From: a virus
Length of the DNA: 32,631 bases
Strand: one strand, 5' to 3'
Virus record (IMG/VR): IMGVR_UViG_3300047673_000124
Span: 1-32,631 of that record
Positions 3,001 through 32,471 of the stretch are shown piece after piece; the stretch's first letter is position 1; each line of letters begins with the position of its first letter. Below the pieces are notes generated by a model, which saw nothing but the letters and a program-made list of their open reading frames with translations, was not told the origin of the DNA and did no database searches. A program made the translations under genes and the position numbers.

Positions 3001-3872
3001 CCAGTCTGGTGATAGTCGCGCAGGATCGTCGTCACCGCGTCGGCGACGGTCCCAACCTCGGCGCCTTCCTGCTTGGCACCCTCAGACGCCGCCTTCAGGA
3101 TCGACAGCGCGTTCGCGGCGTCCTTCGTTGCGTCGGCCTGATGCACCATGCCCGACGACACCGTGTAGGCGCCCTTTGAGAGCTCCTCGGCCGAAACGCC
3201 GACCTGGCCCGCAAGGTTCAAGATGCCGTCCGAGACGCCCGTCAAGGCGTCCTTCGACAGGCCTGCCGATGTGACGAGGCGTACCTGCGACTCCTGGAAG
3301 TCACCGGCCGACTTGGTGGCTTCGGCCGCGCCGATGGCGAACGCACCGAAGCCGATGAGCGCCGCGCCCTTCAGTGCGGTGGCTGCCGTTCCGGTGGCCG
3401 CCGCAGAGCTTGCGACGGCGGTGTCCTGTCGCGCAATGAGTGCTTCCTGTGCGCGGGCTTCGTTGTTCGTGGCGGCCACAACCTCGGCGCTCGCCGCGAC
3501 CTGCTGGCGCTTGACGCGCTCGAGGTTCTCGTACGCCGCGATGTACTTCGACGAGTCTGCGGCGTACTTCAGCCGCGCTTCGTTCTCCTTCGCCTCGGCG
3601 ACCATGACGCGCCCGGAGGCGTCGGCGACGATGTCCTTGGACTTGACTACCGCCGCCGACGCTCGCTCGAGCGTGGCCGTCGCTGCACTGATCTGCCTCT
3701 CCATGGACGCCGTCATCGAGCCGGTGCCCGCGGTGACCCACTGCGAGAGGGATTCCGACATGGCCTTGCCGGTCTGCTCGCCGGCCGCCGTGCCGTCCTT
3801 GACCATCTTGGTCGCGACGCCCTCCATGCCGATCAACCGAGCAGCGATATCGAAAAACACGCCATCGGCCAC
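1..3872 (-). CDS. Tape measure protein with lytic transglycosylase domain (C-terminus cut by window edge)
   Basis: A single open frame runs from a GTG at 3872 to the left edge without a stop, giving more than 1290 residues. The GTG follows AGGAGG by 5 nt. The protein sets tail length and is packed in the tail tube. The N-terminal third is Ala/Lys/Glu-rich and helical. Residues about 600-695 are strongly hydrophobic, as in many tape measures. Residues about 806-895 hold four copies of a W-(V/L)-x-(D/N)-x-(I/V)-IKP motif. Near residue 1167 the segment MTESGGNPNI, followed by a GLVQVTP motif, matches the SLT/lysozyme-like fold, with E1167 as probable catalytic acid. This would cut peptidoglycan during DNA entry. 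It lies directly after the two overlapping tail chaperone frames, the standard siphovirus position. The identity is firm; the C-terminal end is missing. Confidence 0.95.
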   Translation of the reverse strand, partial: MADGVFFDIAARLIGMEGVATKMVKDGTAAGEQTGKAMSESLSQWVTAGTGSMTASMERQISAATATLERASAAVVKSKDIVADASGRVMVAEAKENEARLKYAADSSKYIAAYENLERVKRQQVAASAEVVAATNNEARAQEALIARQDTAVASSAAATGTAATALKGAALIGFGAFAIGAAEATKSAGDFQESQVRLVTSAGLSKDALTGVSDGILNLAGQVGVSAEELSKGAYTVSSGMVHQADATKDAANALSILKAASEGAKQEGAEVGTVADAVTTILRDYHQTGDQAADVTSKLVTAISLGKTQLEPFSEALHNVTPMASTMGVSIADVTGTLAEMTAHGVPAAQASQNLASAMRSLQNAQGPARQELESFGITATQLNDSIGERGVAGTLQWLSESVMKKMGPDGKVLLDSFHSSTDAAHNLDSAIGQLNGPLKDLAVQFNAGDIGVKEFTKGADALGGENRNTAKSIVEMKDKAEGFTTTMKNGGAQSQSYTTAMTKLLGTVEGVNTAFMVTKENGPETAEAIKKISESSGDAEGNVKGWEEVQGNFNQKLAEFKDGIGAVAIKIGTDLLPAATSMVGGLKDVSDWLGNNKWAVDTFLIAIGGAAAAFAVWKTASATWTVISLGIEAATWAMGGFAVAETGATAGATGLAAALAATGISEIVIGVAALVAGLIALGAGVKYAYDHWGWFHDAIQTSWETLKSFGSWIGGVFVAAWHGIVSAVEPVQHAFGNVMHALDNVGHAVGNVLNVLKYAGAIVATVIAVPFVLAFKVAETAVMAFWHQVVEPAMHAIGDIFNWVYNSIIKPVIGFIKDEITGWGIVMSWVYDSIIKPVMDKIGDIWHWLYDTIIKPIIGFIKGDIQAAGDVFNWLHDHVIKPVGDKIGDVFNNLKTTVTGFVEMWKTEFEKIANIVAVPVNYIINTVYNDAIRPVWNGIAHVFSLDEIPEHHFDIAHYAGGGIHQGPGLVPGYAPGQDTVNAKLSPGEGVAVPELVQAIGPSNFLALNHMYSGGRRSANGAVPGFHFDIGGIFSGIGDVVGDAWSGITDAAGLLAKVAKDPVGAVKDLFHKATDLAQGSPGDHSLWRDALVRTPEKFVGGAIEKVKGWLGMHPGAGSGAGGNEAWVSGAGAEQWVPIIVQALAMEGFPTTPEYIEAAKAQIMTESGGNPNIIQTVQDVNSGGNEAEGLVQVTPQTAAGLGLAELGGNLYDPLTNLRLGLRRIKSGWGGDLLGTWGHGHGYAGGGIAGLDSLLAGNYTGNFLGQEEDSPAVASILGLRSLIKDGDFTG

Positions 3873-3883
3873 GGGCACCTCCT

Positions 3884-4402
3884 CTACGTAAGGTCGGACA
3901 GATTCATGTCGCCGTGCACGATTGCCTGCAGTTCCCTGTCGGAGATCTGCTCGTCGTCGCGGGTTTCGGCCTCTTCGGCTGCCAGGTCGAGGACGTACCG
4001 CGGAGCGACCCTGGTGACGGATGATCCGGGCTCGATTTCGTACGAGCCCTCTTGGAAGACTGTCGAGCCGAAGGCGTTGAAATGGCGCACCGCAATGGTT
4101 TCCAGCGTTGTCCACGCCGATTTCAGCTTGCGGGACGTCTGAGAATCCTCGGGAAGTTTCTCGATGAGCACGTGCAGCTCGCGCGAGGTCATGCCCTCAT
4201 TGCGGGCGCTCACACGGTCGACGTAGTCCTGGCCGCGGTTGCCCGCCACGGTGAACGGGAAGGTGGTGCAATACCACTCGCGGAGATGGCGCCCAGGGTA
4301 GAAGTGCTGAATGTCAGCCTCTATCTCCTCGGGCGCCATCTCCAGCCGGGCGAGAACTTCGCCTATTTTGGGCCGTTCATCTCCTGCGTCATCTGACGCC
4401 AT
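3884..4402 (-). CDS. Tail assembly chaperone, -1 frame extension (T part of G-GT)
   Basis: This frame overlaps the 3' end of the preceding chaperone gene by 40 nt and ends with TAG 11 nt before the tape measure start. It probably has no independent start. It is expected to be translated as the C-terminal part of a G-T fusion after a -1 slip at 4366-4372, so the product would continue from the upstream frame into residues KIGEVLARLEM. GT-type chaperones bind the tape measure and recruit major tail protein during tail assembly. The reading frame is open throughout and the ribosomal slip site is at the exact end of the upstream gene. An ATG at 4402 exists, so separate initiation cannot be excluded from sequence alone. 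Confidence 0.9.
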   Translation of the reverse strand: MASDDAGDERPKIGEVLARLEMAPEEIEADIQHFYPGRHLREWYCTTFPFTVAGNRGQDYVDRVSARNEGMTSRELHVLIEKLPEDSQTSRKLKSAWTTLETIAVRHFNAFGSTVFQEGSYEIEPGSSVTRVAPRYVLDLAAEEAETRDDEQISDRELQAIVHGDMNLSDLT

Positions 4403-6908: not shown

Positions 6909-7337
6909 TTACGAAATGCCCCATTCGGTGCTGGGCAGCCGAATCGGGTCGACGCCGCAGTAGGCATTGCCCATGGTGTAGCGGGGGCCCGCCTTCGGCT
7001 TCCAGATGCCGAGGAGCTGCTGGTGGTACTCGCTGAATTCGAGAGTCCGTGCCAGTTCCTCGGATGTCGCCGTACGTGCGCCGGTCCACGATTCGGTACG
7101 GCCACCGACCGTGCGCGTGTAGGTGTTGAGGCCTTCGAGCTTGTTCTTCTGCAGTGCAGCCCGAACGACCTCGATGGACACGATTCGGGCCGCAGGGTCG
7201 GAATCGAGGATGCCGGGCAGCCGGTTCCGAATCCACAACGCCGCGGCGTCGAGAAGGAGGTCTGCGTAGGCGGTTTCGGCGTCCGAGAGAGCGCGCCATG
7301 TGCCGGACACGTCCGTTGTGGTCGCGAATGCTGTCAT
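6909..7337 (-). CDS. Head-tail connector (adaptor)
   Basis: A 142-aa protein, ATG at 7337, abutting the next gene without a gap. The N-terminal region is helical and begins with a phrase usual for Gp15/Gp6-type adaptors: a short TTDVSGTWRALSDAE stretch, then LLLDAAALWIRNRLPGIL, an amphipathic helix. It would bind below the portal ring and form the first connector ring. The C-terminal half, with RTLEFSEYHQQLLGIW, is typical of actinophage homologues. Confidence 0.82.
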   Translation of the reverse strand: MTAFATTTDVSGTWRALSDAETAYADLLLDAAALWIRNRLPGILDSDPAARIVSIEVVRAALQKNKLEGLNTYTRTVGGRTESWTGARTATSEELARTLEFSEYHQQLLGIWKPKAGPRYTMGNAYCGVDPIRLPSTEWGIS

Positions 7338-7350
7338 GGCGCGCTCCTCC

Positions 7351-15401: not shown

Positions 15402-15424
15402 GGTGTTCTCCTTCTCGGTGAGTG

Positions 15425-15499
15425 TGCCCTGACGCGGAGTCGAACCGCCGACCTCCCCGGGTGGATAACCGAGGTGCTCTACCACTGAGCTATCTGGGC
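15425..15499 (-). tRNA. tRNA with 8-base anticodon loop (identity uncertain, Gly-like AUCC)
   Basis: The minus strand gives a 75-nt cloverleaf: acceptor stem GCCCAGA/TCAGGGC with one A-A mismatch, D-arm GCTC-AGTGGTA-GAGC, anticodon arm, variable AGGTC, T-arm GGCGG-TTCGACT-CCGCG with one G-G mismatch, and discriminator A. CCA is not encoded. The anticodon stem CCTCGG/CCGGGG closes a loop TTATCCAC of eight bases instead of seven. U33 is followed by AUCC and then A, which is the layout of +1 frameshift suppressor tRNAs. If UCC is the anticodon it would be tRNA-Gly; alternative triplets are possible. Confidence 0.8.
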
Positions 15500-17787: not shown

Positions 17788-18051
17788 TCACCCCAGAGAC
17801 TTCCGAAGGCTCGGGTCGAGGTGCGTTTCGAGGTGTTCCTGGCAGAGTCGTTCGGTGTCGCCGGTGCCGCGCATCCGTGTCATTTCGGTGCCTTGCCACC
17901 ATTCGACGGCGAGGGCCCAGCCGCATCCGTGGTGTGGGCATTCGAGCTGTCGGCGGACGTGCTCGCCGGGTGCGAGTGGTGCCGCGGTGTCGCCGCTGCC
18001 GTGCTTGATCTTGCGTTTCACGGCAGCGGCGATCATGCGCGCGAGACTCAC
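17788..18051 (-). CDS. Small Cys/His-rich protein, possible zinc ribbon
   Basis: An 87-aa protein; GTG 18051 overlaps the upstream stop (GTGA). The N-terminus is basic (MIAAAVKRKIKHGSG). The centre has CPHHGCGWALAVEW and later RLCQEHLETH, giving two Cys and Cys/His ligands that could bind one zinc. It is the last gene before the long non-coding gap, so it ends the early operon. Function unknown. Confidence 0.75.
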   Translation of the reverse strand: MSLARMIAAAVKRKIKHGSGDTAAPLAPGEHVRRQLECPHHGCGWALAVEWWQGTEMTRMRGTGDTERLCQEHLETHLDPSLRKSLG

Positions 18052-29713: not shown

Positions 29714-30063
29714 GATGCGTTCACCAGCTCGAGGTAGCCGATGACGCCCAGTGCGGCGCCGAGGGTGAGCAGAGTCGTCCAGATGACGAGCCAGTTTCGC
29801 TGGACTTCGACGACGTCCTCGCCGGTCTCGTCTTCAGGCTCCTCGTCGTCAGCAGTGAACGTGGCGACGAAATCGGCGGCGGCGGCCAGTCGGGCCTCGA
29901 TGCGGGCGAAGTCGGGGCGCTCGTCTTCCTCGGTAAGGAGCTGGCCGTCGACCATGGCGGCGTAGATCGGTGTCGTGCGGTAGTGCTCGTCGAGTTCGTC
30001 CTCGCCGACCGCTTCGAGCTGCAGGTTGCCGAGTTGGGCGTAGATGGTGTCAGGGTTCGTCAT
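29710..30063 (-). CDS. Tail-anchored membrane protein
   Basis: A 117-aa protein, ATG 30063 after AGGAGATC. Residues 1-85 are soluble and acidic, with FARIEARLAAAADFVATFTA and a Glu/Asp-rich stretch. Residues 92-113 (WLVIWTTLLTLGAALGVIGY) form a C-terminal membrane helix, leaving a very short periplasmic end. No family recognised. Confidence 0.75.
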   Translation of the reverse strand: MTNPDTIYAQLGNLQLEAVGEDELDEHYRTTPIYAAMVDGQLLTEEDERPDFARIEARLAAAADFVATFTADDEEPEDETGEDVVEVQRNWLVIWTTLLTLGAALGVIGYLELVNAS

Positions 30064-30093
30064 GCGGATCTCCTGAAAATCGTCGGAGTGGTG

Positions 30094-30261
30094 TCAGTGC
30101 TTGCGGTTGGTGCGGCGCGCTTTGCGGGCGGCCTTGTTCTTCCGGCGCCGCTCGGCGGCCTCCGGGTGCCGCACGGTGTCGCCGTAGATGTTCGGCTTGA
30201 GACCGAGGGCGACGAGCAGGGTGCGCTTGTCGCCGGCAAGCTTGTGCGCGGGGTGTTCCAT
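30094..30261 (-). CDS. Small very basic protein (55 aa)
   Basis: ATG 30261 (MEHPAHKLAGDKRTLLVALG). The C-terminal 25 residues (EAAERRRKNKAARKARRTNR) are strongly basic and would bind nucleic acid. No good ribosome site precedes the start. Instead a stable RNA fold ends 20 nt upstream, suggesting unusual translation control. Function unknown. Confidence 0.65.
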   Translation of the reverse strand: MEHPAHKLAGDKRTLLVALGLKPNIYGDTVRHPEAAERRRKNKAARKARRTNRKH

Positions 30262-30367
30262 GCCATGTCCGTTCGTGGTGGCCAGCGGCGGCGGGGAGTC
30301 TTTCGCGTATCTGACGCGGGGTCCCCGAACTCCTTCGGTGATTCAGAACACCCGCCGCCGCTGGGGC
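30262..30367 (-). ncRNA. Candidate structured RNA element (branched fold)
   Basis: This is the second long gap in the early operon. CCAGCGGCGGCGGG at 30282-30295 is the perfect inverse of 30351-30364 (14 bp). The 55-base interior on the minus strand has hairpin CCGAA-GGAG-TTCGG (30325-30338) and hairpin GCGT-CAGAT-ACGC (30305-30317). The GGAG loop can also pair with ACTCC at 30295-30299. There is no T-run, so it is not a simple terminator. A cis-regulatory or processed RNA is possible. Confidence 0.5.
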
Positions 30368-30541
30368 TTAGAGGCGGTCGAGCCGTTCGATCAGCTCGGC
30401 CTTCGTGATGACGCCGCGCTTGGCCTCGACGATGAGGCGCTCGGCGATGGCGTCGTAGTGGTCGACCAGGGCCCGCGGGCGCTCGGCGTGCGGGACGTTC
30501 TCGAGCACCGCGTCGAGGTCACCCTCATACGGCGGCGTCAT
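30368..30541 (-). CDS. Unknown small protein (57 aa)
   Basis: ATG 30541 overlaps the upstream stop (ATGA). MTPPYEGDLDAVLENVPHAE, then DHYDAIAERLIVEAKRGVIT and ELIERLDRL, is mostly helical. It ends with TAA three bases from the branched RNA stem. Function unknown. Confidence 0.7.
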   Translation of the reverse strand: MTPPYEGDLDAVLENVPHAERPRALVDHYDAIAERLIVEAKRGVITKAELIERLDRL

Positions 30542-30786
30542 CGGATCGACCTCTTCATGAACTCGATCGCGAACGCCGCGCCGGCGTTGACGACGAGCGA
30601 ACCGACCTCGAAGGCGTCGACGGCGAACTTGATCAGGCCGGGAATGACCGGCTCGGGAGCAGGCTCGACGAGGTTCTCGAGAGTCTCGATCCGAATGTCC
30701 ACCTCAGAGCGGACGATCTCTCGGACGATCCTGCGAACGTCGGACTCGGTGACGCGCGGCTCGCGGCTGGGGAGGCTGATGCTCAT
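30538..30786 (-). CDS. Unknown protein (82 aa)
   Basis: ATG 30786 (MSISLPSREPRVTESDVRRI), coupled both sides. Residues 12-40 are helical and charged. The C-terminal half (IKFAVDAFEVGSLVVNAGAA) is moderately hydrophobic but not a clear membrane helix. No family recognised. Confidence 0.7.
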   Translation of the reverse strand: MSISLPSREPRVTESDVRRIVREIVRSEVDIRIETLENLVEPAPEPVIPGLIKFAVDAFEVGSLVVNAGAAFAIEFMKRSIR

Positions 30787-32175: not shown

Positions 32176-32212
32176 GTCATTCCTTCGTGGTAGTGGGAAT
32201 CGATCTGGATAG

Positions 32213-32249
32213 GCCCTCAGTTGTTCTGGCAGCTGAGGGCTTTTTCTTT
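32213..32249 (+). terminator. Hairpin with T-run, rightward orientation
   Basis: GCCCTCAG (32213-32220) pairs with CTGAGGGC (32233-32240), followed by TTTTTCTTT on the plus strand. It is a clear intrinsic terminator for rightward transcription. No rightward gene precedes it, so it probably blocks antisense transcripts. Leftward, the T-run is missing, so it would not stop the operon efficiently. Confidence 0.75.
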
Positions 32250-32252
32250 GCC

Positions 32253-32471
32253 TCAGTCACGTTCACTCGGCAGCGAGTCGAGCCAGGCTTGAAGTTCGGC
32301 GGCGGGGATGAGTAGCGAACGCCCGGCGTACCGACACCCGAGGCGACCGGCCTTGATCTCCTTCCTGAGGTATTCGTCCGACATGCCCACTGCTACTGCG
32401 GCTGTTGCCGTGGTGTAGGCGAGCGGTGCGGGCGACTCTGAAAGCAGTCGGGCGGACTTTGCGCTCCTCAC
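32253..32471 (-). CDS. Excisionase-like helix-turn-helix protein
   Basis: A 72-aa protein, GTG 32471 overlapping the upstream stop (GTGA). TTATAAVAVGMSDEYLRKEI, then KAGRLGCRYAGRSLLIPAAE, LQAWLDSLPSE, is the full HTH_17 domain of Xis-like proteins. Its place next to an XRE protein and antirepressor suggests a role in the lysis-lysogeny switch. No integrase is visible in this window. Confidence 0.85.
   Translation of the reverse strand: MRSAKSARLLSESPAPLAYTTATAAVAVGMSDEYLRKEIKAGRLGCRYAGRSLLIPAAELQAWLDSLPSERD

What the first reader, a model, noticed from the sequence alone, without database searches (positions are those of the whole stretch)
30262..30367. Candidate branched structured RNA in the early operon
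Seen: a perfect 14-bp GC-rich inverted repeat encloses two further hairpins, one with loop GGAG. That loop can also pair with ACTCC just inside the closing stem (a possible pseudoknot). The gap is 106 nt in an operon where genes almost always overlap, it has no T-run, and the gene after it has no clear ribosome site. Inference: a cis-regulatory RNA, processing site or small RNA that controls the basic 55-aa protein. I do not recognise a named RNA family.
Basis: partly seen in the sequence, partly recalled or inferred. Interest (0 to 1): 0.72.

Follow-up and report, generated by a model that had tools for sequence, protein, structure and literature searches.

The report
Conserved structured RNA in actinophage operons
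A folded RNA of about 60-85 letters sits once, between genes, in the early operon of many temperate viruses of Rhodococcus and its relatives; its fold has been kept while its letters and neighbouring genes changed, so it is real and probably controls how the early genes are expressed, but what it does is untested.

Summary
The 106-nt gap at 30262-30367 (minus strand) carries a perfect 14-bp closing stem around two hairpins; 100 dinucleotide shuffles of the window gave no such inverted repeat. Relatives show a real, previously unclassified RNA family: 32 distinct copies were compared, from about 45 viral contigs, prophages and two named phages, Rhodococcus phages Whack and REQ2. Across 25 aligned copies, 96.8% of stem cells pair and 53 cells carry compensatory double changes (0 of 500 shuffles). 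Conserved: the closing stem P1 (9-15 bp), one hairpin P2 with a CAGAU pentaloop, and a semi-conserved GGAGUnCYG / GUARGACCG stretch. Not conserved: the GGAG hairpin as a helix, and the GGAG-ACTCC pseudoknot. No Rfam family matches. The element is always co-directional with the genes, usually 2-13 nt after a stop codon, between changing neighbours, so it is not tied to the 55-aa protein. Model hits were confined to Mycobacteriaceae in the genomes sampled. Best reading: a cis-acting structured RNA of the early transcript; a nascent-RNA antitermination or anti-polarity role is the leading guess (about 0.35). mRNA processing or stability, protein-bound regulation and an excised small RNA remain open. 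No expression or functional data exist here.

The parts
30351..30364 (-). P1, 5' arm of the closing stem (CCAGCGGCGGCGGG)
   Evidence: Perfect 14-bp complement to 30282-30295; P1 pairs in 98.6% of cells across 25 copies with double changes at three pairs
30325..30350 (-). Variable arm holding the GGAG stretch; forms hairpin CCGAA-GGAG-TTCGG (30338-30325) in this copy
   Evidence: Fold; the helix is also in L007 but broken in Whack/L008; the sequence stretch GGAGUnCYG / GUARGACCG recurs in the 32 copies
30304..30318 (-). P2 hairpin, CGCGT-CAGAT-ACGCG, conserved pentaloop CAGAU (30313-30309)
   Evidence: 94% of cells paired, four pairs with double changes; loop CAGAU in 27 of 32 copies, CCGAU in 4, CCUAU in 1
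30296..30303 (-). Junction strand between P2 and P1 3' arm, contains most of the ACTCC proposed for a pseudoknot
   Evidence: Sequence; no such complement inside the closing stem in L007, L015 or Whack
30282..30295 (-). P1, 3' arm of the closing stem (CCCGCCGCCGCTGG)
   Evidence: covariation
30368..30541 (-). Upstream gene, 57-aa protein; its stop codon ends 3 nt before P1
   Evidence: Homologues in Whack gene 44 and Mbo4 gene 39 and in L007 and L008
30094..30261 (-). Downstream gene of this copy, basic 55-aa protein; not a general partner of the RNA
   Evidence: PHROG 1622, unknown function, E 5e-8; C-terminal relative in Gudmit gene 42, and R2 found no copy in the L003 stretch around that gene

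Best explanation
The gap encodes one copy of a conserved structured RNA of the early lytic transcript. Its shape is a long closing stem (P1), a variable arm with a semi-conserved GGAGUnCYG / GUARGACCG stretch, and a hairpin (P2) with a CAGAU pentaloop. SHOWN: the fold is under selection, it is read in the sense of the operon, and it persists while the genes on both sides change. INFERRED: it works in cis as the transcript emerges. The mechanism I rate most likely is that, once the ribosome has left the upstream stop codon, the RNA folds at the RNA polymerase and, alone or with a host or phage protein reading the CAGAU loop and the unpaired stretch, lets the polymerase pass terminators or Rho-type polarity in the rest of the long operon. 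That resembles HK022 put RNA in logic, not in shape. I put about 0.95 on a real conserved RNA, 0.8 on a cis role and 0.35 on the antitermination or anti-polarity mechanism (the confidence given here is for that mechanism).
For: Structure: 25 aligned copies, 96.8% of stem cells paired against 82.8% in shuffles, 53 double-change cells against 20.9, covariation 0.356 against 0.124, 0/500 shuffles; slid registers fall to 30-60% paired. Same result on 19 copies. Sense strand: on that strand imperfect cells are G.U (20) more than A.C (8, six of them at one P2 pair that alternates U.G and C.A). Not coding: the stop-to-start gap (100-149 nt) takes all three values modulo 3, with stops in varying frames. 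Cis logic: one copy in the window; all 25 copies measured are oriented with the flanking genes, 22 of them 2-13 nt after a stop codon, next start about 19-73 nt after P1. Neighbours change: 57-aa gene (window, L007, Whack), other small genes (L014, L015, L045, L106), single-strand annealing protein (L179) or Sak4-like ATPase (L181) upstream. Whack carries it about 1.35 kb into the rightward run of genes 41-77 and REQ2 about 2.7 kb after Orf41.
Against: No transcript, terminator, polymerase or protein contact was measured. No T-run terminator or promoter of note was found near the element in the window. Mbo4 and L005 keep the upstream gene, and Mbo4 a similar downstream leader, but lack the element, so the operon can do without it. 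In the L179-L181 group it lies after recombination genes, so it is not always near the start of the operon. Strong GC stems right after stop codons could equally be stability or processing elements.
Confidence: 0.35

Rival explanations
1. mRNA processing or stability element: P1/P2 marks or blocks ribonucleases so that the genes on either side of the gap are expressed at different levels.
For: Very stable stem, usually 2-13 nt after a stop codon, in a gap of stable total length 100-149 nt; no terminator T-run.
Against: Stability alone does not call for a conserved CAGAU loop and a conserved unpaired stretch; a branched core is not a plain RNase III duplex.
Confidence: 0.22
2. Protein-bound regulatory RNA: a phage or host protein binds the P2 pentaloop and controls translation or transcription of the next gene(s), lambda boxB-like or as an autoregulatory operator.
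For: Pentaloop CAGAU kept in 27 of 32 copies while the stem letters change, and the second pair from the loop is U.G in 10 and C.A in 6 copies, which are isosteric wobbles. The window's 55-aa protein has an arginine-rich end (AERRRKNKAARKARRTNRKH).
Against: The 55-aa family is not seen beside the other copies examined, and its relative Gudmit gene 42 lies in a stretch without the RNA; spacing to the next start varies from about 19 to 73 nt and downstream genes differ.
Confidence: 0.2
3. Small RNA excised from the early transcript and acting in trans, for example on host mRNA, the ribosome (GGAG) or a defence system.
For: Compact, self-contained fold; conserved unpaired letters; independence from flanking genes.
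Against: No own promoter or terminator seen in the window; orientation never varies in the 25 copies measured and the post-stop position rarely; GGAG is replaced by GUAAG/GUAGG in whole lineages.
Confidence: 0.13
4. DNA-level element (replication origin, single-strand initiation site or recombination boundary) whose strands form a cruciform.
For: Lies near recombination genes and between exchanged gene blocks.
Against: Imperfect stem positions favour G.U on the sense strand, which would be A.C on the other strand; always co-directional with the flanking genes.
Confidence: 0.05
5. Chance GC-rich inverted repeat or missed gene.
For: High G+C sequence makes stems easy.
Against: Covariation and shuffles; no common reading frame.
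Confidence: 0.02

Closest known systems
HK022 put RNA (PMC9378689)
   Same: About 70-nt structured RNA in the early transcripts of a temperate phage; a conserved fold in cis
   Different: put is two side-by-side stem-loops, two copies near PL and PR; here one closing stem encloses the rest, one copy in the window, 1-3 kb into the operon where measured; no polymerase contact shown
Lambda-type nut site (boxB hairpin with N protein)
   Same: A small hairpin with a conserved pentaloop in an early operon (lambda side from general knowledge)
   Different: Loop CAGAU, enclosed in P1; no N-like partner found that travels with it
SAS/ESAS repeats of Cluster K mycobacteriophages (PMC3203893)
   Same: Conserved inverted repeats in non-structural gene regions of actinophages, function unknown
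   Different: SAS are 11-19 copies of a 13-bp sequence at translation starts; ESAS are 17-bp repeats with 4-13-bp spacers; here one copy in the window, no SAS match
EAR (eps-associated) antitermination RNA of Bacillus
   Same: Structured RNA between genes inside an operon (recalled, not read here)
   Different: No Rfam match of any kind to this element

Membership tests
Any Rfam 15 family | Score at or above the family's gathering threshold | tested here: not met
   Only a tRNA elsewhere in the window; weak chance matches at 30000-30600; no match on 13 loci holding relatives
HK022 put RNA | Two adjacent stem-loops, not enclosed | tested here: not met
   Covarying closing stem P1 encloses P2 and the variable arm; definition from PMC9378689
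HK022 put RNA | Suppresses termination by binding RNA polymerase | not testable with these tools
   Needs transcription assays
Lambda nut/boxB with N | Hairpin with a conserved pentaloop | tested here: met
   P2 with CAGAU in 27 of 32 copies
Lambda nut/boxB with N | Cognate arginine-rich N protein encoded with it | tested here: inconclusive
   Window 55-aa protein is arginine-rich (PHROG 1622) but it was not seen beside the other copies examined
Lambda nut/boxB with N | boxA sequence upstream of the hairpin | not tested
   No search for boxA was made
SAS/ESAS of Cluster K | 13-bp GGGATAGGAGCCC at starts, many copies | tested here: not met
   No match with up to 2 mismatches in the window
Intrinsic terminator | GC stem followed by a run of U | tested here: not met
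   No T-run after P1 in the window or in the relatives listed
Readthrough or frameshift stimulator | Frame joins upstream and downstream genes | tested here: not met
   Gap length takes all three values modulo 3 across copies

The most novel reading that the evidence does not exclude
A new class of phage RNA that by itself reprograms the RNA polymerase of Mycobacteriaceae hosts for processive antitermination or anti-polarity, a protein-free counterpart of HK022 put with an unrelated fold.
Probability: 0.22. Interest if true: 0.82.

Novelty: new variant of a known kind. Interest (0 to 1): 0.6.

Why it matters
To my knowledge little is known about RNA-level control in actinophages. This is a covariation-supported RNA family, without an Rfam entry, carried by two named phages (Whack, REQ2) and many prophages, so its function can be tested directly. 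If it is an antitermination RNA it would give mycobacterial and rhodococcal genetics a new control part and help answer how these phages read long early operons.

Tried and rejected
Close-relative searches with the 55-aa and 57-aa proteins alone in IMG/VR found nothing. DNA similarity of the element alone finds no true relatives in phage records, because the letters diverge. Most of the 85 hits of the degenerate pattern are chance matches: weak P2, no common flanks. The GGAG-ACTCC pseudoknot and a CAG-CUG loop contact were looked for by eye and are not kept. A hammerhead-like core was considered by eye: not kept in relatives, no Rfam ribozyme match. Stop-codon readthrough: rejected. An alternative hairpin GGACCG/CGGUCC that excludes P2 exists in the L101/L106 lineage only. 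Weak R1 model hits below about 40 bits in genomes are mostly chance; R2 was used for distribution.

Full report
WHAT WAS CHECKED. The minus strand from 30370 to 30261 was read directly. After the stop of the 57-aa gene come 3 nt, then a perfect 14-bp stem (30364-30351 with 30295-30282) enclosing CCGAA-GGAG-TTCGG and CGCGT-CAGAT-ACGCG, then 20 nt to the ATG of the 55-aa gene. The 83-nt core folds at -46.6 kcal/mol, z -4.76. None of 100 dinucleotide shuffles of the window held a 14-bp inverted repeat spaced up to 100 nt. The window is an IMG/VR virus record, G000.

FIRST RELATIVES. The upstream 57-aa protein led to Rhodococcus phages Whack and Mbo4, to IMG/VR contigs L005 and L007 and to a prophage of Rhodococcus sp. 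IEGM 1409, L008. Whack and L008 carry, 3-4 nt after the stop of this gene, an 11-bp stem around two small hairpins with quite different letters. L007 carries CGGTGGCGG...CCGCCACCG around CCGAAGGAGTTCGG and CCGCGTCCTATGCGCGG. Mbo4 and L005 lack it, with the upstream gene running into the next, although L007 and Mbo4 share the leader of the next gene. So the element can be gained or lost.

FAMILY. A covariance model (R1) found copies in further Rhodococcus prophages (L014, L015) and in contigs fetched through the neighbouring exonuclease (L043, L044, L045, L055, L057). A degenerate pattern in IMG/VR gave 85 hits, of which about 22 are true by structure, flanks and loop. A second model (R2) found copies in 8 of 401 Mycobacteriaceae genomes at E below 1e-4, one of them with two, none beyond the seed genome among 395 genomes sampled from the class, and only two already known genomes among 369 of the order. 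It also found phage REQ2 (L079 2890-2959). Two last patterns added more contigs. In all about 45 records; 32 distinct sequences were compared. The genome scans used strict filters and the samples are partial, so absence outside Mycobacteriaceae is not proven.

STRUCTURE UNDER SELECTION. On a MAFFT alignment made without structure (19 copies, A9), P1 (9 pairs) and P2 (6 pairs) pair in 97.2% of cells against 85.7% in shuffles, with 32 cells changed on both sides against 9.6, 0/500. On 25 copies (A10): 96.8%, 53 cells, covariation 0.356 against 0.124, 0/500; partners slid by one to three columns pair in 30-60%. On a tree built from the elements themselves, several pairs changed type repeatedly (P1 pair 9 eight times, P1 pair 7 seven times, P2 pair 2 six times by parsimony; the outside-anchored count misreads the bulged mycobacterial-type copies at some P1 pairs). 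The P2 loop is CAGAU in 27, CCGAU in 4, CCUAU in 1. The variable arm keeps a GGAGUnCYG or GUARGACCG stretch shortly before P2.

WHERE IT SITS. In 22 of 25 copies P1 starts 2-13 nt after a stop codon; in three (L113, L150, L178) another GC-rich hairpin lies between. The next start codon follows after about 19-73 nt. The gap is 100-149 nt in 19 measured copies, with no common frame. Upstream genes are of many kinds, including a single-strand annealing protein (L179, PHROG 3290) and a Sak4-like ATPase (L181), and downstream genes differ too. In Whack the element is at about 34315-34377, 1.35 kb after gene 41 begins the rightward run of genes 41-77; in REQ2 at about 35267-35338, 2.7 kb after Orf41.

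MECHANISM. Shown: a sense-strand RNA fold kept by selection, independent of its neighbours, single copy in the window, in early operons. Inferred: a cis role. The pattern (co-directional, flanks free to change, apparent restriction to one host family, conserved unpaired letters, no terminator tail) fits an RNA that acts on the transcription machinery or on polarity better than a gene-specific switch; I rate that 0.35. Processing/stability, protein-bound control and an excised small RNA follow. No step of function has been measured.

COMPARISON. No Rfam family matches the window or relatives. HK022 put RNA (PMC9378689) is the closest in logic but differs in fold, copy number and place. Cluster K SAS/ESAS repeats (PMC3203893) are a different kind. 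The 2026 survey of Rhodococcus phages (PMC13313380) discusses Whack and REQ2; a term search of its text showed no mention of such an RNA, though I did not read it in full.

Noticed in passing
window 15424-15499, minus strand: A tRNA gene (Rfam 42 bits) for which ARAGORN could not name an amino acid and gives a four-base anticodon (atcc), that is an enlarged anticodon loop.
   Followed up: partly
window 32211-32242: A hairpin of up to 14 pairs between the small HTH gene (32253-32471, minus) and the antirepressor (start 32175, minus). Rhodococcus relatives L014 and L015 have other hairpins preceded by A-runs upstream of the element, near the comparable place.
   Followed up: no
L113, L150, L177, L178, just upstream of the RNA element: A second GC-rich hairpin (GGCGCCGAACCCA...TGGGTTCGGCGCC type) lies between the upstream stop codon and the element, with no T-run.
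   Followed up: no
L079 (phage REQ2 JN116823) about 3029-3184: An unannotated 51-aa gene (MKLFNRNRPATPLDVL...) with a ribosome site follows the RNA element; L043 has a relative. The public annotation leaves the gap empty.
   Followed up: partly
window 4282-4343, 7289-7346, 17990-18032: Other long perfect inverted repeats (13, 12 and 14 bp; loops 36, 34, 15) in the left two thirds of the window.
   Followed up: no
IMGVR_UViG_2773857765_000002 and _000003; _2734481913_000002 and _000003; G194 contigs C247 and C202: Source genomes that carry two viral contigs or prophage places, each with its own copy of the RNA element.
   Followed up: no
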